In this document: positions 18,544 to 55,390 of the stretch, one piece after another
Layout of the letters: the number at the start of each line of letters is the position of its first letter
How positions within the stretch are numbered: the stretch's first letter is position 1
Assembly (NCBI RefSeq): GCF_026168555.1
Contig: NZ_CP092471.1
Coordinates: 940,501 to 1,004,500, forward strand
Reading direction: 5' to 3'
Source of the DNA: Qipengyuania spongiae
Lineage (GTDB): Bacteria; Pseudomonadota; Alphaproteobacteria; Sphingomonadales; Sphingomonadaceae
Length of the DNA: 64,000 bases
Notes under the pieces: generated by a model
What the model saw: the letters and a program-made list of their open reading frames with translations, nothing else
Told to the model about the DNA's origin: nothing
Databases searched by the model: none
Translations under genes and position numbers: made by a program

Positions 18544-19074
18544 CTATCTTTCGATCACGTCGCCCGACATCGGTGCCAGCTTGGAGAGGAAGCGGTTCTG
18601 CGCGGCGAAGGGCACGCCTTCCTCGCCCATGGCAGCCTGCAGGTTCTCGACCAGAGCGTTCATGTCGCCCTTGCGAGAGCCGAGCCCGTCGTGAGATGCG
18701 CGCATGTCCCGGCCGGTATAGTCGCAGCCCGCGTTGAGAATGTAACAGAACTGTTCGAACAGCGTGCGGCGCAGGCGGACCGTGTCGTGGCCCGCAAAGA
18801 TCGCCGCAATGCGCGGATCGGCGAGGTTGAGATCGACCAGCCGGTCGACCACACGGCGGATGCCCGGCTGACCGTTGAAATGCGCGGCCATGCTGTCGCC
18901 GGCGAAGGGTGCGGCGCCGGCATTGGCGTTGCTGCGATCGTATGGCTCGACCGGAAGCTCGCCGGTGATGGAGTCGCGTATCTCGGCCTCGACGCCGAAT
19001 TCGGCGTCCCAGTCCACGTCGGGGTCGGGGGCCTGCTGAAGGACCAGGAGGGGGATGGCTGCGAGCAGAAGCAT
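18544..19074 (-). CDS. Group 1 truncated haemoglobin with N-terminal leader
   Basis: A 176-residue protein whose C-terminal 110 residues match group 1 truncated globins: helix segment VVDRLVDLNLADPRIAAIF, then LFEQFCYILNAGCDYTGRDM and proximal His128 in ASHDGLG. Cys110 and Cys117 flank the haem pocket region. The N-terminal 15 residues are very hydrophobic and followed by an acidic linker, suggesting export or a membrane anchor, unlike the cytosolic forms; signal cleavage is uncertain because the n-region lacks positive charge. It follows the DUF3034 gene by 24 bases and faces the cupredoxin / c-di-GMP genes. Likely ligands are O2, NO or peroxide. Confidence 0.82.
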   Translation of the reverse strand: MLLLAAIPLLVLQQAPDPDVDWDAEFGVEAEIRDSITGELPVEPYDRSNANAGAAPFAGDSMAAHFNGQPGIRRVVDRLVDLNLADPRIAAIFAGHDTVRLRRTLFEQFCYILNAGCDYTGRDMRASHDGLGSRKGDMNALVENLQAAMGEEGVPFAAQNRFLSKLAPMSGDVIER

Positions 19075-19098
19075 GGGCGTAAATCCTGGAAACGGGTT

Positions 19099-20067
19099 CT
19101 AGAAGGCGATCTGAGCCTGGAGAAAGGCCCCGCGCTGTTCCTCGAACGTCGCGATCGAGCCGAGATCGGCGTAGGCGGCGGTGAGCGTGAGAAAATCAGT
19201 TGGCGCGTAGGCCGCGAACAGATCCATCCAACCGTCTTCGCCGAGGCCGAGATTGTCGGGCTTGCTGCGATATTCAGCACCCAGGGCGAAACGACGCGAG
19301 AACTGGTAGGCGAGCGATCCCTCGAACTGGAGACCGTAATCGGGATGGGCGGCGCTGCCGAAGCCGAGGAGGCCGTTCTGATTGGCCTTGGTCAGACGCA
19401 ACGTGCCGTTGGCGAGAATGCTGCGCGACAGCAGCAGCTTGGTCGCCGAGACGTAGACATCGGTGCCTTCCGCCTCCGCCGCCCCGAGCGCTGCGACGAC
19501 GGCGTCGTTGCGGCTGCGCTTGTGCTGGACGCCGAGGCTGATCTGCGGAAGTAGCGGCTCGCCGTAAACGAGATCGCCAAGCAGGCGAAACTTTGCTCCG
19601 AACACGTCCTGGCTGAACGTGTAACCCTCGCCGAGACCGAGCGCGGCGCCCGCATCGTTCGTGTCGAAATTCTGCCGGGCGTAGCTCAGCTCGATCCGAT
19701 TGCCGAAGCTCGCGGCAACTCCGTGGCTCTGCCAGGTGAAGTCGGGCAGCAGGACCAGCGTCGCGTGGGCCGAAATGCCCAAGCCGCGCTCCTCCATGCC
19801 TGCCAGCGTCGCCCAGCTGGCGATGCCGCCGCCGCTGGTTCCCTCGATCGTGGTGACGCCGTTGGTCAGAAGCAGTTTGCCGCTGTAATCGATACTGGGC
19901 GCGAACGGCTCGGCCGCTTGGTCAGGCGGGAGGAACGCCTCGGTTGCGGCTTCGTCCGAAGCGGAGACGCCGGGCCCATTCATTACATACTGCCCCTCGG
20001 CGGCAGCAGGTGTGGCCAGAATCCAAACTGCGAGCGCTGCGACGGCGAACGGGCGGTTTATCGACAT
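19099..20067 (-). CDS. DUF3034 family outer-membrane beta protein
   Basis: A 322-residue exported protein with Sec signal (cleavage after ATPAAA, residue 22). The conserved opening of the mature domain is LLLTNGVTTIEGTSGGGI, which I recognise as DUF3034. The rest alternates short hydrophobic and aromatic strands and ends in a terminal Phe (QAQIAF), as in outer-membrane beta barrels of porin/FadL size. Function is undescribed. It is first gene of a two-gene unit with the truncated globin and divergent, across 73 bases, from the amicyanin-like and GGDEF/EAL genes. Confidence 0.8.
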   Translation of the reverse strand: MSINRPFAVAALAVWILATPAAAEGQYVMNGPGVSASDEAATEAFLPPDQAAEPFAPSIDYSGKLLLTNGVTTIEGTSGGGIASWATLAGMEERGLGISAHATLVLLPDFTWQSHGVAASFGNRIELSYARQNFDTNDAGAALGLGEGYTFSQDVFGAKFRLLGDLVYGEPLLPQISLGVQHKRSRNDAVVAALGAAEAEGTDVYVSATKLLLSRSILANGTLRLTKANQNGLLGFGSAAHPDYGLQFEGSLAYQFSRRFALGAEYRSKPDNLGLGEDGWMDLFAAYAPTDFLTLTAAYADLGSIATFEEQRGAFLQAQIAF

Positions 20068-20090
20068 CCGAACCCTCTGGAAGCACAGGG

Positions 20091-20106
20091 TTTAAATCGG
20101 ATTAAC
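20091..20106 (+). promoter_or_regulatory. CtrA-like box between DUF3034 and cupredoxin genes
   Basis: TTTA-N7-TTAAC matches seven of eight bases of the CtrA consensus TTAA-N7-TTAA plus the following C. It lies in the 73-base divergent gap, 34 bases before the cupredoxin start and 23 bases from the DUF3034 start, so one site could control both arms. Confidence 0.45.
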
Positions 20107-20140
20107 TCCGCTCGGACACTTTCTTAACCCGAACCCGAAT

Positions 20141-20764
20141 ATGCGGGAGGCTATGATCAAGCTCGCGCTCATCCTCGTTTCGGCCATCGCCCTTCCCTTG
20201 GCGGCGGCCTGGAGCGCGGCCCCGGGCGATGTCCGCGTGCAGGTGGTCGACGAACGCGGGATGCCGGTCCGCGATGCGGTGGTCGAGATCGCGGCATCGG
20301 GCGCCGCGGCGGGCCGGATCACCTTCCCGTGGCGGATGGCGATGGCGCAGAAAAACGAACAATTCGTACCCGGGACATTGATCGTCGCGCGGGGCAGCAC
20401 GGTCGCCTTTCCCAATCTCGACCGGGTCCGCCATTCGGTCTACAGCTTTTCCAAGCCTGCGCGTTTCTCGATCGACCTCTACGGCCGCGACCAGACGCGC
20501 AGCCAGAACTTCCCGATCGCCGGCAGTGTGGCGATCGGCTGCAACATCCACGATGCCATGCGCGGGTATATCCGTGTGGTCTCGACCCCCTATGCGGTAA
20601 AGACGGACCATAACGGCATAGCGGCTCTCACCGGGGTCCCTCGCGGCGCGGCGACTGTCACCGTGTGGCATCCGCGTCTGCGTGCGCCCGGTGGCGAGCT
20701 GTCCCGCAAGACAACCATCACCGGCGGCAGCGACCGCACGAAGATCCCAGTGAAGCTGCGCTGA
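20141..20764 (+). CDS. Exported amicyanin-like cupredoxin (methylamine-utilization-type annotation)
   Basis: A 207-residue periplasmic protein with a Sec signal (cleavage near residue 26). A cupredoxin-like core follows, with candidate type-1 copper ligands His98 (VRHSVYSF), Cys134, His137 and Met140 in CNIHDAM. The Cys-x2-His-x2-Met spacing is that of amicyanin. A C-terminal carboxypeptidase-regulatory-like beta domain (about residues 150-207) follows. Family members are often labelled methylamine utilization protein, but no methylamine dehydrogenase genes are here, so that role is unlikely. An alternative start at 20153 gives a tidier signal peptide but its GGAGG sits only 2 bases away. The gene ends 2 bases before the GGDEF/EAL gene, so the two are co-expressed. 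Confidence 0.82.
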   Translation: MREAMIKLALILVSAIALPLAAAWSAAPGDVRVQVVDERGMPVRDAVVEIAASGAAAGRITFPWRMAMAQKNEQFVPGTLIVARGSTVAFPNLDRVRHSVYSFSKPARFSIDLYGRDQTRSQNFPIAGSVAIGCNIHDAMRGYIRVVSTPYAVKTDHNGIAALTGVPRGAATVTVWHPRLRAPGGELSRKTTITGGSDRTKIPVKLR

Positions 20765-20766
20765 CG

Positions 20767-23073
20767 ATGAGGCGGTTGTGGCGTTCCATCTGGCGCTTCG
20801 GGTCGCTGCGTCTGCGTATCGGGGTCCTTTACGCCCTGCTCTTCGCCGCGGTCCTGGCGGCGGTGATGACGATCGTGGATGCCGGTATCGAACGTTTCGG
20901 CGAAGATGCCGCCTCGCGCGATCTCGCCGCCAACGCGCGGGTGTTCGACGAAATTCTCGGATTGCGCGCACGCCAGATGAGCGGTTCGGCGGCGGTCCTG
21001 GCGAGCGATTTCGGTTTTCGCGAGGCCTTCGCAACGCAGGACCGACCCACGATCGCCAGCGCGCTCCGCAGCCTCAAGCATCGCTCGGGAGCGGGCGGTG
21101 CCTTCGCGGTCGGGCTGGACGGAACGCTGATCGGCGACGGCGCCTCGCCAAATTTCGATGTCGCCACGATATGGGGGGCGCTGGACGCTGGCGAGGATCA
21201 GGGCATCATCCGCCTGGGCGATACGCTGGCGCTCGCCGCGGCCTCGCCGATCGAGGCGCCCGATCTGCTCGGCTGGCTGGTCGTCGCGCAGCCACTGGAT
21301 GCGACGGAGATGGAGCGGCTCGCCGCGCTCGGTGCCGTCGAGATGAACGCGACCATCTCCGCCCGGAGCGATCTGCCGGACTGGGCCGCGAACGCCGAAC
21401 CGGGCGAAGTCGTGGAGGGGCCCGAAGACGAGCCGGTGCTGCATCATTTCTCCCGCCTCGCCACGCTCCAGGAAGGGCTCTCGCCGCGGCTGGCGCTGGC
21501 TCATCCGCTGGGCGAGGCGTTGTCGCGCTACGCGACGCTGCGTTACCAGTTGGCGGCGATAGCGCTGGCGGGTCTGGCGCTAATCATCGCGCTCGGTTTC
21601 CGGATCTCCGGTTCGATCACCGGACCGCTCGGCCGCCTCGATGCCGCCGTGCGTGCCTTTGCCCGCGGCGAGGAACTGTCTCTGGAAGTCAGGACCGATG
21701 ACGAGGTCGGCCGTCTGTCTTCCAGCTTTAAGGCGATGGTCGGTGCGATCGAGGAGCGCGAGCGGCAGATCGTCCATGTCGGCCTGCATGACGGATTGAC
21801 CGGCCTGCCCAACCGAAAGCTCTTCGTCGAACAGCTCTCCCGCGCGTTGGCGCGGCGCAGGACGGGCGAGCGGCTGCTTGTCGCCTATGTCGATCTCGAC
21901 GATTTCAAAGTGGTCAACGACACGCTCGGCCATCCGGCCGGAGATGCGCTGCTGCGTCATACTGCCAAGGACCTGACCCGATGCCTGCCCGATGCACAGA
22001 TCGCGCGGCTGGGCGGTGATGAGTTCGCCATCCTGATCGACGGGATCGATCCGTCCGCCAATCTTGCCGCCATCGCCGACAATATGCAGTCCTGTTTCGG
22101 CCGGCCGATCACGATCGACGGGGTGACCGCCGAAACTTCTGCCAGCGTCGGCATCGCGATTGCTCCCGGCGACGGCGAGGATGGCGTGACGCTGATGAAA
22201 CATGCCGACCTTGCGCTCTATCGCTCGAAGCGAGAGGGCAAGGCCGGGCACCATTTCTTCGAACCGGCCCTCGACGAGCAGGCGCGGATGCGGCGCGAGA
22301 TGGAACTCGACCTGCGCCTCGCGATCCGCGACGGCGGGTTCGAGCTCTATTTCCAGCCGCTCTACAATCTCAGGGACGACTGCCTTCAGGGTTTCGAGGC
22401 GCTGATCCGCTGGCCGCATCCCAGGCGCGGCATGATCAGTCCGGCCGAATTCATCCCGCTCGCCGAGGAGACCGGGCTGATCGTGCAGATCGGCGAATGG
22501 GTCCTTCGCGAAGCTTGTCGCATTGCGACCCGCTGGCCCGAGAACCTGACCGTGGCGGTCAACATCTCGCCGCGACAGTTCGCCGCACCGGGCCTGTCCT
22601 CGACCATCCTGCAGGCGCTTGGCCAGTCCGGACTGGCCCCGAACCGCCTCGAGCTGGAGATCACCGAAAGCGTCTTCATCGCCAACATCGAGAAGACCTT
22701 GAGCGCGCTTCACGGCCTGCGGGACCTTGGCGTCAAGATCGCGCTCGACGATTTCGGTACGGGCTATTCCTCGCTCAGCTATCTACGCAGCTTTCCCTTC
22801 GACAAGGTCAAGATCGACCGCAGTTTTGTTCGCGACCTGACCGAGGAGGGCAATGCCCATGCGGTCATTCGGGCGATCACCACGCTTGCCGAAGCACTCG
22901 GCATGGCGACGCTGGCAGAGGGGGTGGAACTGCCAGAACAGTGCGAAATCCTGCGGCGCGAAGGGTGCCAGTTCATCCAGGGCTATCTGTTGAGCGAGCC
23001 GGTGGAGGAGCATCGTCTGGCCGGGCTGATCGGCGATTACGCCGAGATCGAGCGATCCGCCCTGCGAGCTTGA
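20767..23073 (+). CDS. Periplasmic-sensing GGDEF/EAL bifunctional c-di-GMP enzyme
   Basis: A 768-residue inner-membrane protein. One helix (about 17-38) leads to a periplasmic sensor domain of about 220 residues (Cache/4-helix-like, family uncertain), a second helix (about 260-280), HAMP, GGDEF and EAL. The GGDEF motif is intact at 416-420 and EAL is intact at 544-546 (FEALIRW), with DDFGTGYSSLSYL and KIDRSFV; both synthesis and breakdown of c-di-GMP are therefore possible. No RxxD inhibitory site was looked for in detail. The ATG at 20767 is 2 bases after the cupredoxin stop. Genetic coupling suggests the cupredoxin reports a periplasmic redox, copper or gas signal to this sensor. Confidence 0.93.
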   Translation: MRRLWRSIWRFGSLRLRIGVLYALLFAAVLAAVMTIVDAGIERFGEDAASRDLAANARVFDEILGLRARQMSGSAAVLASDFGFREAFATQDRPTIASALRSLKHRSGAGGAFAVGLDGTLIGDGASPNFDVATIWGALDAGEDQGIIRLGDTLALAAASPIEAPDLLGWLVVAQPLDATEMERLAALGAVEMNATISARSDLPDWAANAEPGEVVEGPEDEPVLHHFSRLATLQEGLSPRLALAHPLGEALSRYATLRYQLAAIALAGLALIIALGFRISGSITGPLGRLDAAVRAFARGEELSLEVRTDDEVGRLSSSFKAMVGAIEERERQIVHVGLHDGLTGLPNRKLFVEQLSRALARRRTGERLLVAYVDLDDFKVVNDTLGHPAGDALLRHTAKDLTRCLPDAQIARLGGDEFAILIDGIDPSANLAAIADNMQSCFGRPITIDGVTAETSASVGIAIAPGDGEDGVTLMKHADLALYRSKREGKAGHHFFEPALDEQARMRREMELDLRLAIRDGGFELYFQPLYNLRDDCLQGFEALIRWPHPRRGMISPAEFIPLAEETGLIVQIGEWVLREACRIATRWPENLTVAVNISPRQFAAPGLSSTILQALGQSGLAPNRLELEITESVFIANIEKTLSALHGLRDLGVKIALDDFGTGYSSLSYLRSFPFDKVKIDRSFVRDLTEEGNAHAVIRAITTLAEALGMATLAEGVELPEQCEILRREGCQFIQGYLLSEPVEEHRLAGLIGDYAEIERSALRA

Positions 23074-23171: not shown

Positions 23172-26100
23172 TCAGGCGGCCAGACGGGGGCGGATGCCGG
23201 CGAGAAGTTCGGCCGCCGTCTCGGCGCTGGCTTTGGCGAGGCGGTATTCCGCATCGCTCGACGCATCCCCCAGCTCCGCTTCTCCGAAATAGGCGGCAAC
23301 GCCGGCGATCTGATGGAGCAGGCCGGCGATTTCGGCAAGCGTCTCGCCTTCCAGTCTTCCGTCCCGCAGAGCGGTGTCGATAGCTTCCAGCGCGAGGCGC
23401 TTGCGCTCCGCGAACATGGCGGAAAGGTCGGGCCCTGCTTCCCGGACGAGCTCTTCCGCCGGTTCCTCTTCGATCTCCGACACCTCATCGGCCACAGCAA
23501 GCTCGCCGTTTCCGATCCATTTGTGCAACGCGGCTTCGAGATCGTGCATCCGCAGCGGCTTCGAAAGATGATCCTGCATTCCCGCCGCACGGCATTCGGC
23601 GACGTCGTCGGCATAGGCGTTGGCGGTGAGGGCGACGATCGGGAGATCGCCCGGAGTACAGCCCGCGGCCCTGATCCGGCGAGTCGCCTCGAGCCCGTCG
23701 AGATTGGGCATCTGCATGTCCATCAGTACGAGGTCGTAAGGTGTGCCGTCGGCCATCGCGCGTTCGACCATCTCGACCGCGACGGCACCGTCCGGCGCCA
23801 GTTCGGCAGTGCATCCCGTCCGCGCGACCATTGCCATCGTCAGGCGAAGGTTCACCGGATTGTCCTCGGCAACGAGGATGCGGGCGCCTGCTCGAAAAGG
23901 CTCGGCGGTATCGACGTGATCGGCGCTTTCCACATGGGGCGCTTCGCAGGGGCGGCAGGGAAGAGTGAGAGTGAAGGTCGATCCGACGCCCGGCATGCTT
24001 TCGACCGCCAGTTCGCCTCCCATCAAAGCGGCGAGTTCCGCGCTGATAGGCAGGCCCAGTCCCGTTCCGCCATAGCGTCGCGCGACGCTTTCGTCGGCCT
24101 GGGTGAACTTGTCGAATACATGGGCGATGCGGTCGGCCGGGATGCCGATGCCGGTATCGCTGACAGCGATCGTCATCGTATCCTTCTCGGGCCCGCGCCG
24201 GGCGACAATTTTCACCGCCCCCTTCTCGGTGAACTTGAGGGCGTTGCCGATCAGGTTGAGGACGATCTGGCGCACGCGCATGGCGTCGCACAACACCCAT
24301 TGCGGCAGATCGTCGGCGACATCGAGCGTGAACGCCAGATCCTTCAGGGATGCGACAGGCTCCATCAGGCGGACGGCCCCGCGTAGCTTGTGCCGCAGGT
24401 CGACGGGTTCGGATGACACCGTCATGAGACCCGAACCGATCTTCGCAAGATCGAGCAGATCGTTGAGCAGTCGCAGCATCGAACGGCCGGACTCGGAGAT
24501 CATCTCCAGATTCTGACGCTGTTCGGGATCGAGTTCGCCCGCCAGCGCCAGTTCGGTGAAGCCAATCACGCCGTTCATGGGCGTGCGAATTTCGTGGCTC
24601 ATATTGGCCAGGAACGCGGATTTCGCCTCGACCGCGCTTTCGGCGGCCTCTTTCGCGGCGAGCAGTTCGGCCTCGAGCCGCTTGGTTTCGTTGATGCTCC
24701 GCAAGGAGGCGATGATCTCCTCCGGTTCGCCCGTCGCGGGATCGCGAACGAGACCGCAATTCGCTTCGAGCCAGTTAAATTTGCCGCTCTCGACAACGCT
24801 GTAGGAGCGGAAGGCGAGCCGGACGCGCTCGTTATGCCCACTGGCGAGACGGGCGAACGCATCCGCCACCTTCTGCCGGTCTTCCTCATGGAAGCCGGTG
24901 ATGAGTTGCTCTCCGACCAGTCGCTCCGGATTGATTCCGAAAATTTCCCGCGAGGAGGGAGATGCGTATTTGCAGATCCCGTCAAGCGAGAGGCGGACCA
25001 CCGTATCGGTCGCGTTGTCGGCCAGCAGTTTGAGCTGCTTCTCGCGGCGGGCAAGTTCCAGCTCCGCCTTCTTGCGCGCGGTCATCTCGCTGACGATTCC
25101 GACATAGCCCGACCGCCGGCCTTCGGGATCGAATTCGGGCCTGAACATCACTTCGGCCCAGACAATGGACCCATCCTTGCGGACCCAGCGGAATTCTTCG
25201 TCCGCGCCTTCCTGCGCGGCGCGCGACGAGGTCCAGGAATCGCGCACCCGGGCCATGTCGTCGGGATGTAGGGCGGAAATCCACTTGCCCCCGCGCCACT
25301 CGTCGTCATCCAGCCCCGCCAGCGTCATCCACCGTTCGTTGACATAGGTGATCTGCCCGTGACGGTCGGAGCGGAAAATCCCGACAGGCGAGGCTTCGGC
25401 TAGGCGGCGGAAGCGCTCCTCGCTTTCGGCGAGTTCGTGAGACTGGCGAATGCTTTCCGTGACGTCACGGATGGTGCCGACGCCGCCGGTGAAGTTGCCG
25501 TCGACATCCCTCTGCGGTTCGATGCCGATCGAGACATGGCGCAGCCCCTGGACCTCCGTCGAGATGCGTACCGCGAGGCGTCCGGCGTCTTCTCCTGCCT
25601 CGATCCGGGCCTTCCAGTCCGCCAGCTTCTCCCCGTCTGCCTCGATCACTCGGGAAAAGGCCGGGCGGCCACGAGCGGCGTCGATCGCAAGGCTCGTATG
25701 CGCCGCCCACTGGCGATTGACGAACAGCCAGCGCCAGTTCGCATCGACCTTGAACACCAGATCGTCGAGCCCGTCGATGATCGAAGCGACGAAGTCCCGG
25801 CTTTCCGTCAGTGCATCACGAATTTCGTTACGGTCGGACAGAATGGTGGCGACCGGAAGCCCGATCGCCATGCAAGTGGCGAGGAAGACTTGCAATGCGA
25901 TCGCTTCCTCGCGCGGACCGCCCCTTACGAGGTTGATCGGGCCGTACCCGTTCATCGTCGCGAGGAAGGCGAAAATGGCCAGGATGGCGACCACGACGGC
26001 CGTTCCCAAGCGTCCGGTGCGGAAGGCGGTGAAGATCACGATCGGTGCCGCCAGGAACAGGAACGGATAGGTGGTCTGTAGAAAGGTGATCGGCAATCCG

Positions 26101-26735
26101 ACCGCCAGCGCCGCGAAAACCGCGGCCCAGCGTCGCAGGAATTCGCGGTCGTAGCGTTGCGGCCGTGCGGCGGGATCGCGTGCGATCACAACGATCGGCG
26201 CGAAGATCGCGATGGGCAGGCAGTGCGCGGCGAGCCACCGGCCGTAATGCGCCAGGAACGGCGTGTCGCTGTAGAAAGACAGGGTCGCGCCGGCGATGAT
26301 GCCCGAGATCGGCGGGATGGCGAGAGCGACGCATGCCACGACCGCGATGGGTCTCAATCCTTCGAAATTGAGATCGGCCGCGAGGAACCGCTGCAGCACG
26401 TAAATGGCGACCGCATTCTCGAGAAGATTGGCGAGGACCAGTCCGCTGGCTTGCCCCGCCACATCGCCGAAGAACAGGTTCACCGCGAGATTGGCGCAGG
26501 CGCAGAGCACGAGTCCGACGATCTGCTGCGTCAGCACTCTCTGCACGAGCAAACCGATGACGAAGGCGTTGCCAACCCAGAAGGCGGCGAGGCGGCCCGT
26601 ATCGAAAGTCAGCCGGATGGTGAGGTAGGCGATCAGTCCGTAGAGCGCGGCCAGCAGCAGCGAGGAGGTGATGCTCCATCGCGGCTGGGGGTGAGGTTCG
26701 ACCTTGGCAAGGGTGTCCGATTTCGATTTCGCCAT
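23172..26735 (-). CDS. MASE1 / multi-PAS hybrid sensor histidine kinase with receiver and Hpt
   Basis: A 1187-residue inner-membrane kinase. MASE1-type membrane sensor with about eight helices (residues 20-300; FWVGNAF motif); three PAS/PAC regions (about 315-440, 450-570, 580-700); HisKA with phospho-acceptor His714 ([12 protein letters not shown]); HATPase with DTGIGIP and [10 protein letters not shown]; receiver with acceptor Asp1006 (LMDMQMP) and KPL; and a C-terminal Hpt domain with His1141 ([13 protein letters not shown]). All elements of an internal His-Asp-His relay are present, and the final receiver must be encoded elsewhere. It is preceded by a CtrA-like box and a stem-loop close to its start codon. 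No cognate regulator adjoins it. Confidence 0.93.
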
Positions 26736-53824: not shown

Positions 53825-55390
53825 TCAGGCCGCGCGGCCATCGCTCTCTGCGAGTTTCAGAGCGGCGATCTTTCCTTCGGGCTGGACGGCCTGGGGAAAG
53901 AGCCGGGGCGCTTCGATCCTCCGTCCGAGATATTGCGGAATGTCACTGGCCGGCATCGCCTTGAAGTAATGCCAGCCCTGGATCGTGTCGCATCCGGCGG
54001 CACGGACCATCTCGGCCTGCTCGCGGGTTTCGACGCCTTCGGCGGTCACGCCCATGTTCATCGCCCGCGCCACGGTTATCGAGGATAGCATCATCGCACG
54101 GCTGCCATCGTCGTGCCCCGCATTCGCGATCAGGCTGCGGTCGAGCTTCAGCTTCTCGAAGCGGAACCGGCGCAGGAAGCCGAAGGAGGCGTAGCCGGTC
54201 CCGAAATCGTCGAGCACCACCTTCACTCCAAAGCCGCGGATGACCCCGAGGCTGCGCTCCGCAACCTTGGGGTCGATCACCAGGCAGGTCTCGGTGATCT
54301 CCAGCTCGAGACGTTCGGGATCGAAGCCGGTCTCTTCCAGGATCTGGCCGAGCTGGATGGGAAATTCGGGATTGCGCAGCTGCGCGGCGGATATGTTCAC
54401 CGACAGCTTGATGCCCTCCCAGGCAAGCGCATCGCGGCAGGCGCGGCGCAGCACCCACAGACCGATGGGATTGATCAGGCCCGATTTTTCAGCGGCAGGG
54501 ATGAACACGTCCGGCCCGATCGCTCCGCGGCCGGGCGGGTTCCATCGTATGAGCGATTCCACCGCTACCACACGGCGCGAATCGCAATGCACCAGCGGCT
54601 GGTAGTGCAGATCGAATTCCTGGTTGGCGAGCGCGCTGCGCAGGTCGTCGTCGAGTTCGCGGGTCTGCTCGCGAGAGCGGTCGAAGTCCGGGATGAACCA
54701 GGTGCAGCGGCCTTTGCCCGCGCGCTTGGATTCGTACATCGCGACATCGGCGCGCCGGAGCATTTCGGACGAGGCGACAGCCGCCCCGCTCGTGCTTCGC
54801 GTGAGACCGATGCTGGCCCCGAGATTGAGACGGCGCTCGCCGATATGGATCGCGGCCGAGAGGCGCTCGATCGCCTTGCGGCTCAACCCCTCGACGATGT
54901 TTCCGGCGAGCGGCCCTTCCTTGACCAGGGCGAACTCGTCTCCGCCCAAGCGATAGACCGATGCCTCGCCCTTGCAAATCCCCATCAGGATCGAGGCGCA
55001 TTCGCGGATTGTCTCGTCGCCGATCTGATGCCCGTATTGTTCGTTGACCAGCACGAAGCCGTCTAGATCCACGAGCGCGATCGCCATTTCGCCGGCGTCG
55101 CGCGAGAGATGAAGGTAATCGGCATGCAGCGCACGGCGATTGGGCAGGCCGGTCAGGCTGTCCATCAGGGCGAGCTTCTCGACCGATATCGACTGACGGA
55201 TGCCGTGGAGAACCAGCAGAGCGGCTGCGCAAGCGAAAGCGACGGAGCCGCCGACGAGCGGGGCCAGTCCGAACCTGCCATCGACGATCAACGCCGCGAC
55301 GACCATCGCGAACATCCCGGAAAGGATTGCGACAGGTATGAAGACCACGGCGCGCATGTCCGGTCTCACGGGAGTGTTCGTTCCTGCCAC
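53825..55390 (-). CDS. Membrane GGDEF/EAL c-di-GMP enzyme in the chemotaxis cluster
   Basis: A 521-residue protein. Two helices at the N-terminus (about residues 12-32 and 38-58) lack an extended periplasmic domain; GGDEF follows (about 75-235) with intact RLGGDEFAL, and EAL (about 250-495) has ESL in the signature place (VESLIRW). The other EAL catalytic residues are present (ISAAQL Asn, ITET Glu, DDFGTGYAS, LKLDRS, AEGVET). Both activities are possible. The start is uncertain: GTG at 55390 has AAGGA just upstream; ATG at 55417 and 55462 are alternatives. It lies between cheR and the methyl-accepting gene, all on one strand, which ties c-di-GMP to this chemosensory system. Confidence 0.88.
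   Translation of the reverse strand: MAGTNTPVRPDMRAVVFIPVAILSGMFAMVVAALIVDGRFGLAPLVGGSVAFACAAALLVLHGIRQSISVEKLALMDSLTGLPNRRALHADYLHLSRDAGEMAIALVDLDGFVLVNEQYGHQIGDETIRECASILMGICKGEASVYRLGGDEFALVKEGPLAGNIVEGLSRKAIERLSAAIHIGERRLNLGASIGLTRSTSGAAVASSEMLRRADVAMYESKRAGKGRCTWFIPDFDRSREQTRELDDDLRSALANQEFDLHYQPLVHCDSRRVVAVESLIRWNPPGRGAIGPDVFIPAAEKSGLINPIGLWVLRRACRDALAWEGIKLSVNISAAQLRNPEFPIQLGQILEETGFDPERLELEITETCLVIDPKVAERSLGVIRGFGVKVVLDDFGTGYASFGFLRRFRFEKLKLDRSLIANAGHDDGSRAMMLSSITVARAMNMGVTAEGVETREQAEMVRAAGCDTIQGWHYFKAMPASDIPQYLGRRIEAPRLFPQAVQPEGKIAALKLAESDGRAA

What the first reader, a model, noticed from the sequence alone, without database searches (positions are those of the whole stretch)
18544..23073. 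Divergent DUF3034 + truncated globin / amicyanin-like cupredoxin + GGDEF-EAL module
Seen: two two-gene units face each other across 73 bases. One has a predicted outer-membrane DUF3034 protein and a group 1 truncated globin with a hydrophobic leader. The other has an exported cupredoxin with His98, Cys134, His137, Met140 (amicyanin spacing) and, 2 bases later, a c-di-GMP enzyme with a large periplasmic sensor and intact GGDEF and EAL. From memory, unverified here, these four families recur together in proteobacteria. Inference: a periplasmic haem/copper couple reports a gas, redox or copper signal to the c-di-GMP sensor; the barrel may admit the signal or be the target.
Basis: partly seen in the sequence, partly recalled or inferred. 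Interest (0 to 1): 0.75.

Follow-up and report, generated by a model that had tools for sequence, protein, structure and literature searches.

The report
Blue-copper protein paired with envelope receptor
Next to each other in this bacterium lie genes for an exported blue-copper protein, a membrane receptor that breaks down a signalling molecule, an exported haemoglobin and an outer-membrane pore; across many bacteria the copper protein and the receptor almost always occur together, which suggests an undescribed way of sensing conditions outside the cell.

Summary
In 397 Pseudomonadota genomes DUF3034 occurs in 46, and all 46 hold this globin family. The cupredoxin and the receptor's periplasmic domain co-occur in 59; 3 have only the former, 1 only the latter, 334 neither. 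So the block is two near-obligate pairs: DUF3034 barrel + exported globin, and cupredoxin + dCache-type receptor.

Best reading: a trans-envelope sensory module whose blue-copper protein is the receptor's periplasmic partner. The signal is not established.

The parts
18544..19074 (-). Exported-looking group 1-like truncated globin (176 aa): hydrophobic leader, proximal His128, Cys110/Cys117, apolar B10 (Val80), E7 (Leu101), E11 (Leu105)
19099..20067 (-). DUF3034 (PF11231), predicted 12-stranded outer-membrane barrel, C-terminal Phe
20068..20140 (.). Divergent intergenic region of 73 bases
20124..20129 (+). TTAACC, a motif over-represented in this intergenic region of relatives; resembles a CtrA half-site (6 of its 8 letters here)
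   Evidence: CtrA site from passages of PMC3692519 and PMC6180460
20141..20764 (+). Exported-looking cupredoxin-containing protein (207 aa); relatives that bear a name are often called 'methylamine utilization protein' or 'plastocyanin'
20321..20584 (+). Cupredoxin domain, about residues 61-148, with H98 C134 H137 M140
20219..20320 (+). First part of the flanking carboxypeptidase-regulatory-like domain (about residues 27-60; second part about residues 149-207 = 20585-20761)
20767..23073 (+). Transmembrane receptor, dCache_3-HAMP-GGDEF-EAL (768 aa)
20911..21318 (+). dCache_3 periplasmic sensor match (residues 49-184)
21604..21756 (+). HAMP (residues 280-330)
21787..22242 (+). GGDEF domain (residues 341-492), canonical RLGGDEF here; no GG[DE]E[FY] in 46 of 96 module receptors
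22309..23001 (+). EAL domain (residues 515-745) with complete catalytic set E544 N599 E634 D661 D662 K682 E718 Q738

Best explanation
A trans-envelope sensory module in which an exported blue-copper protein is the dedicated periplasmic partner of a dCache_3-HAMP receptor. In the window the receptor's conserved output is c-di-GMP hydrolysis by the EAL domain. Proposed working: the DUF3034 barrel in the outer membrane and the exported globin capture or admit a small signal, most likely nitric oxide or another diatomic or a change of periplasmic redox state; this changes the haem/copper state; the cupredoxin, in its Cu(I) or Cu(II) form, docks on the dCache_3 domain and sets EAL activity, lowering c-di-GMP and favouring the motile state. 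Shown here: gene order, domains, predicted folds, invariant metal ligands, near-obligate genomic pairing of cupredoxin with receptor and of globin with barrel, output swapping, conserved EAL site. Inferred: export of the globin in this strain, copper and haem binding, physical docking, direction of the effect, and everything about the signal.
Against: The profiles were built largely from module members, and only the best 6-10 candidates per genome were scored, so extra copies can be missed. I noticed no fusion of cupredoxin and receptor in the tables. Cupredoxins also occur with no receptor adjacent (for example L040, L062, L068, L192, L196, L209, L212). E14 of the globin is polar (Gln 109, His 10, Tyr 5, Lys 4 of 130), so the pocket is not free of polar groups. 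The window's own globin leader has no basic n-region and no lipobox. Genomes are related; Fisher p-values ignore phylogeny. Lowering the cupredoxin cut-off from 1e-30 to 1e-20 adds three genomes without the sensor (G185, G022, G042). The 96 receptors were filtered at over 600 bits to a GGDEF-EAL profile and over 700 aa, which favours intact ones. No experiment, no complex model. The control for GGDEF decay was too small to use.
Confidence: 0.6

Rival explanations
1. Copper sensor: the cupredoxin reports periplasmic copper (apo versus holo) to the receptor; globin and barrel handle a by-product of copper stress.
For: Invariant type 1 copper ligands and near-obligate pairing with the receptor fit a copper-loading signal equally well.
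Against: No further family recurs next to the module: after the four genes the next commonest neighbour family is in 5 of 47 loci (I did not search for copper-resistance families by name). A haem protein is not needed for copper sensing.
Confidence: 0.17
2. Periplasmic NO or peroxide detoxification (or respiration) by the globin with the cupredoxin as its electron carrier; the receptor only tunes expression or behaviour.
For: Cupredoxins usually carry electrons (recalled); haem and copper proteins lie side by side; in L203 a di-haem CCP/MauG protein lies between the cupredoxin relative and a histidine kinase.
Against: The cupredoxin tracks the receptor, not the globin: 21 of 46 DUF3034-free cupredoxin loci have another barrel-like protein and no such globin within 6 kb. 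The globin lacks the B10 Tyr/E11 Gln set of HbN (the wild-type residues and their link to O2 binding are recalled).
Confidence: 0.12
3. The barrel is the effector: DUF3034 and the alternative barrel export a surface factor, and the receptor adjusts this through c-di-GMP; globin and cupredoxin are quality or redox controls.
Against: No recurrent substrate gene next to the module; fold similarity to KdgM and NanC is also high, so function cannot be read from fold.
Confidence: 0.08
4. Neutral operon conservation without functional linkage.
For: None beyond adjacency.
Against: Flanking genes are not conserved, gene order differs between classes (one operon versus divergent), and the cupredoxin-receptor pairing persists when unlinked.
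Confidence: 0.03

Closest known systems
HmsCD and YfiBNR type systems (periplasmic protein controlling a membrane c-di-GMP enzyme)
   Same: A periplasmic protein acts on an inner-membrane c-di-GMP enzyme with a periplasmic domain; redox input for HmsC (passages of PMC8846402). YfiBNR with YfiB in the outer membrane is recalled.
   Different: Here the periplasmic protein is a blue-copper protein, the conserved output is hydrolysis rather than synthesis, the outer-membrane part is a barrel, an exported globin joins, and outputs other than c-di-GMP enzymes occur.
H-NOX with an associated c-di-GMP enzyme; globin-coupled sensors
   Same: A haem protein is linked to c-di-GMP turnover; O2-binding H-NOX are marked by a distal Tyr, others bind NO (passages of PMC8738867).
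   Different: Not known to me as exported proteins (recalled; 'periplasm' has 0 occurrences in the main text of PMC8738867); here the globin is a separate, exported-looking truncated globin.
Amicyanin, plastocyanin, purple cupredoxin
   Same: Fold and H-C-H-M ligands with amicyanin loop spacing (spacing in amicyanin recalled).
   Different: Inserted in a carboxypeptidase-regulatory-like domain and tied to a receptor, not to methylamine dehydrogenase.
FapF / KdgM / NanC outer-membrane pores
   Same: Barrel fold.
   Different: No porin found by sequence profile; near-obligate exported globin partner.
Mycobacterial HbN (trHbI)
   Same: Ungapped alignment around the haem pocket, proximal His.
   Different: Exported-looking; apolar B10/E7/E11; C110 and C117; E14 polar.

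Membership tests
DUF3034 (PF11231) | Pfam model over gathering score | tested here: met
   300.8 bits against cut-off 25
Cupredoxin, blue type 1 copper protein | Cupredoxin fold | tested here: met
Cupredoxin, blue type 1 copper protein | His-Cys-His-Met ligand set | tested here: met
   162 of 162 relatives over 110 bits, not de-duplicated
Cupredoxin, blue type 1 copper protein | Binds copper, blue spectrum | not testable with these tools
   needs protein
Group 1 truncated haemoglobin | Bac_globin model, kinship to trHbI structures, proximal His | tested here: met
   26.9 bits against cut-off 21; best-named structures are HbN and group 1 globins; His128 in 130 of 130
Group 1 truncated haemoglobin | Tyr B10 with polar E7/E11 distal network typical of O2-binding trHbI (recalled) | tested here: not met
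   B10 V/L/I/M in 128 of 130, E7 and E11 apolar in 130 of 130 (mapping from the ungapped alignment)
dCache_3 receptors | dCache_3 then HAMP | tested here: met
   38.9 bits against 25.7; HAMP 32.6 against 25
EAL phosphodiesterase | Complete catalytic residue set (residues recalled) | tested here: met
   window and all 96 module receptors examined
GGDEF diguanylate cyclase | GG[DE]E[FY] motif | tested here: met
   window yes; 50 of 96 in the family
GGDEF diguanylate cyclase | RxxD inhibitory site five residues before the motif (recalled) | tested here: not met
   LPDA in the window; the site is optional in active enzymes (recalled)
YfiBNR | OmpA-like YfiB and YfiR-domain protein | tested here: not met
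   Pfam at E 0.01 shows neither in the four proteins; works like it, is not a member
Globin-coupled sensor | Globin fused to the output enzyme | tested here: not met
   separate gene, no globin hit in the receptor
FapF amyloid secretion pore | Fap operon partners | not tested
   no Fap family was searched for

The most novel reading that the evidence does not exclude
A general, undescribed class of bacterial receptor: a blue-copper protein is the obligate signalling partner of a dCache_3 receptor family whose cytosolic output is interchangeable (c-di-GMP phosphodiesterase, class III nucleotide cyclase, Ser/Thr kinase, histidine kinase), with an outer-membrane barrel as third part in many loci and, in the DUF3034 version, an exported NO-type globin. 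The redox or loading state of one copper atom outside the cell would set second-messenger levels inside.
Probability: 0.4. Interest if true: 0.88.

Novelty: new variant of a known kind. Interest (0 to 1): 0.74.

Why it matters
How bacteria read extracytoplasmic redox state, NO or copper into c-di-GMP is largely open; a 2022 census of c-di-GMP stimuli has 0 occurrences of cupredoxin and of copper in its main text (PMC8846402). If right, a family whose named members are often called 'methylamine utilization protein' is a set of signalling proteins, found in 62 of 397 Pseudomonadota species genomes; DUF3034 gets a first functional context; and single-gene deletions in harmless sphingomonads would test the idea directly.

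Tried and rejected
Tried and rejected or left open: (a) FNR/FixK boxes in 70 divergent intergenic regions: 0 strict matches, relaxed 2 against 2.4 expected. (b) Neighbour genes beyond the four: next family in 5 of 47 loci. (c) Nine neighbours in DUF3034 loci that lack parts of the block, plus one minimal cupredoxin, were scanned; none of the nine matched a signalling family. (d) PDB sequence search with the cupredoxin alone gave one chance hit, E 0.83; with the profile it gave cupredoxins. (e) PDB profile searches with DUF3034 and with the second barrel-like family found no porin. (f) A control set of GGDEF-EAL-like proteins without this sensor came to 11, of which 3 had a full EAL set and 1 of these a canonical GGDEF; too small. 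(g) Fusion of cupredoxin and receptor: none noticed in the listed open frames; not searched systematically. (h) Literature: DUF3034 in 2 papers, one opened, where it stands in a figure legend on a retron; cupredoxin with methylamine utilization protein and diguanylate cyclase 0; cupredoxin with c-di-GMP and periplasmic 3, listing only; truncated hemoglobin with c-di-GMP and operon 4, listing only; methylamine utilization protein with EAL domain 1, listing only; group 1 truncated with periplasm, signal peptide and globin 0; purple cupredoxin with nitric oxide 3, listing only; plastocyanin with GGDEF and truncated hemoglobin 0. The library lacks most subscription papers, so absence in print is not shown.
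Full report

2. Is the association real? DUF3034 occurs in 46 of 397 Pseudomonadota genomes, the window's own included, and in 29 of 231 genera; in the window's family it is in 4 of the 21 genomes listed, so it is patchy. I fetched 46 stretches (45 other genomes, G078 twice), which with the window make 47 loci. Of these 45 have the globin and 40 the cupredoxin, and 36 have all four with a GGDEF-EAL receptor next to the cupredoxin. The next commonest neighbour family is in 5 loci. Of the two loci without an intact globin, L050 has one about 10 kb away and L077, a broken DUF3034 copy, has one with an in-frame stop. Named hosts include Sphingomonas, Novosphingobium, Sphingobium, Brevundimonas, Phenylobacterium, Caulobacter, Hyphomonas, Frateuria, Rhodanobacter and Burkholderiales. 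In 27 of the 40 fetched loci outside the window's class the order is cupredoxin > receptor > DUF3034 > globin on one strand; in all seven alphaproteobacterial loci of this survey, window included, the two pairs are divergent.

3. Two near-obligate pairs. Profile searches of the same 397 genomes with the cupredoxin (A1), the receptor's periplasmic domain (A5) and the globin (A2) give: cupredoxin x sensor 59 both, 3 cupredoxin only, 1 sensor only, 334 neither; DUF3034 x globin 46, 0, 2, 349; DUF3034 x cupredoxin 45, 1, 17, 334. By genus (231): 36/3/1/191, 29/0/2/200 and 28/1/11/191. Limits: the profiles were built largely from module members; only the best 6-10 candidates per genome were scored; cut-offs were chosen after seeing the tables (cupredoxin 1e-30, globin at least 139 bits; sensor 1e-10 was set beforehand); a cupredoxin cut of 1e-20 adds three genomes without the sensor; the p-values (5e-26 or smaller) ignore kinship. 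58 of 68 sensor hits lie within 3.5 kb of a cupredoxin, 54 within 150 bp on the same strand; 9 of the 10 others are in genomes with a cupredoxin elsewhere. Persistence of the pairing without linkage is the strongest sign that the two proteins work together.

4. Output swap and barrel swap. Cupredoxin loci away from DUF3034, and L050 beside it, show other outputs: class III cyclase in L194, L219, L227, L228, L230, L233, L234; Ser/Thr kinase in L050, L202, L238, L239, L240 (the last two with a dCache_1 hit below cut-off; L242 is 78% identical to L240); histidine kinase in L190 and L226 (dCache_3 below cut-off in both). On a sensor profile built only from the 96 GGDEF-EAL receptors the cyclases and histidine kinases score 154-223 bits and the Ser/Thr kinases 47-55. 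In L144 and L151 a minimal cupredoxin of about 100 aa and a 4HB-HAMP-HisKA kinase follow DUF3034-globin (L151 by 77% identity to L144). Of 46 cupredoxin loci over 110 bits without DUF3034 (29 and 17 of the 24 such loci), 21 have a second family of about 415 aa within 6 kb, with weak porin-type Pfam matches in some members (Porin_4 in 5, OMP_b-brl in 4, BBP2 in 3 of 21 scanned). None of those 21 has the globin near, but two Caulobacterales-type loci, L110 and L124, hold such a barrel-like gene beside a DUF3034-globin pair. In L191, L193, L196, L209 and L212 this protein is adjacent with no receptor next to the cupredoxin.

5. Output chemistry. In 96 module receptors (window included; not de-duplicated; chosen at over 600 bits to a GGDEF-EAL profile, over 700 aa and within 120 bp of a cupredoxin) all eight EAL catalytic positions are kept in 96, while GG[DE]E[FY] is found in 50. 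The window has both motifs but no RxxD site in the usual place. Conserved output: hydrolysis of c-di-GMP. I had no adequate control for how often GGDEF decays in other hybrid proteins.

6. Globin chemistry. From the ungapped alignment to HbN, B10 is Val80, E7 Leu101, E11 Leu105, E15 Phe109, F8 His128 (HbN numbering recalled). Of 134 fetched loci with DUF3034, 130 have the globin, in each case within 150 bp of it. In these 130, not de-duplicated: B10 V/L/I/M in 128, E7 L/F/V/I in 130, E11 L/F/I in 130, His F8 in 130, Cys110 and Cys117 each in 121; E14 is Gln/His/Tyr/Lys in 128. A lipobox-like motif is found by a strict pattern in 33 of 130; several visible ones (for example L035, L048, L052) escape it. 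No signal-peptide predictor was run. An apolar distal side lacks the H-bond donors that hold O2 in HbN (recalled); in H-NOX a distal Tyr marks the O2 binders (passages of PMC8738867). I therefore favour NO, with CO, redox change or copper not excluded.

7. Regulation. An enrichment scan of 70 divergent regions pointed to GGTTAA. With controls from the same loci, TTAACC/GGTTAA is in 21 of 47 module regions (20-400 bp, window not included) against 6 of 91 other divergent and 10 of 217 other intergenic regions; TTAACCAT in 8 of 47 against 0 of 91 and 0 of 217. Loci are related and the motif was picked after the scan, so these counts are not independent. TTAACCAT is the CtrA half-site (passages of PMC3692519 and PMC6180460). 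The window has TTAACC at 20124-20129, not the full half-site, and I did not check that its genome holds ctrA; it has two Flagellin_N matches and nine other EAL matches, one of them broken.

8. Mechanism and limits. The module is best read as a receptor with a blue-copper partner protein (confidence 0.6 for the whole statement, higher for the cupredoxin-receptor partnership, lower for NO/redox as signal). It works like HmsC-HmsD (passages of PMC8846402) or YfiBNR (recalled), a periplasmic protein acting on a membrane c-di-GMP enzyme, but belongs to neither. The c-di-GMP stimulus census PMC8846402 has 0 occurrences of cupredoxin and of copper in its main text. Ten literature searches of an open-access library (68, 69 and 86 for background) showed no description of the module in their listings.

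Noticed in passing
window 23172-26735 (-): Convergent with the receptor gene: large hybrid kinase with MASE1, PAS, HisKA, HATPase, response regulator and a weak Hpt match; a gene clustered with it by BLAST (534 aa) lies near L072's module.
   Followed up: no
window about 53960-54649 (-): A second EAL-domain protein in the window, from genome place C1:994460-995149.
   Followed up: no
L203 6981-7994 (-): Di-haem CCP/MauG-type protein between a distant cupredoxin relative (119 bits) and a hybrid histidine kinase: another haem protein next to this copper family.
   Followed up: partly
L191 4829-7932 (+): TonB-dependent receptor and PKHD-type hydroxylase just before cupredoxin plus second barrel-like gene; L193 and L196 have genes of similar size in the same order.
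   Followed up: no
L144 11250-11899 and L151 3044-3337: Minimal cupredoxins of about 100 aa after DUF3034-globin, then a histidine kinase; L144 has two tandem copies; the one copy scanned matches PF13473 below cut-off.
   Followed up: partly
G078:C3:72191-73313 (L077): Decayed DUF3034 in pieces with an in-frame TAG, and a globin with an in-frame TAG; open copies sit on C1 of the same genome.
   Followed up: no
G274:C2:1726251-1726676 and G145:C30:832566-832970: Strong members of this globin family in two genomes without a DUF3034 match.
   Followed up: no
L152 8935-9861 and L155 12133-13452: Cupredoxin relative followed by a sensor-like membrane protein in which no output domain was found.
   Followed up: partly
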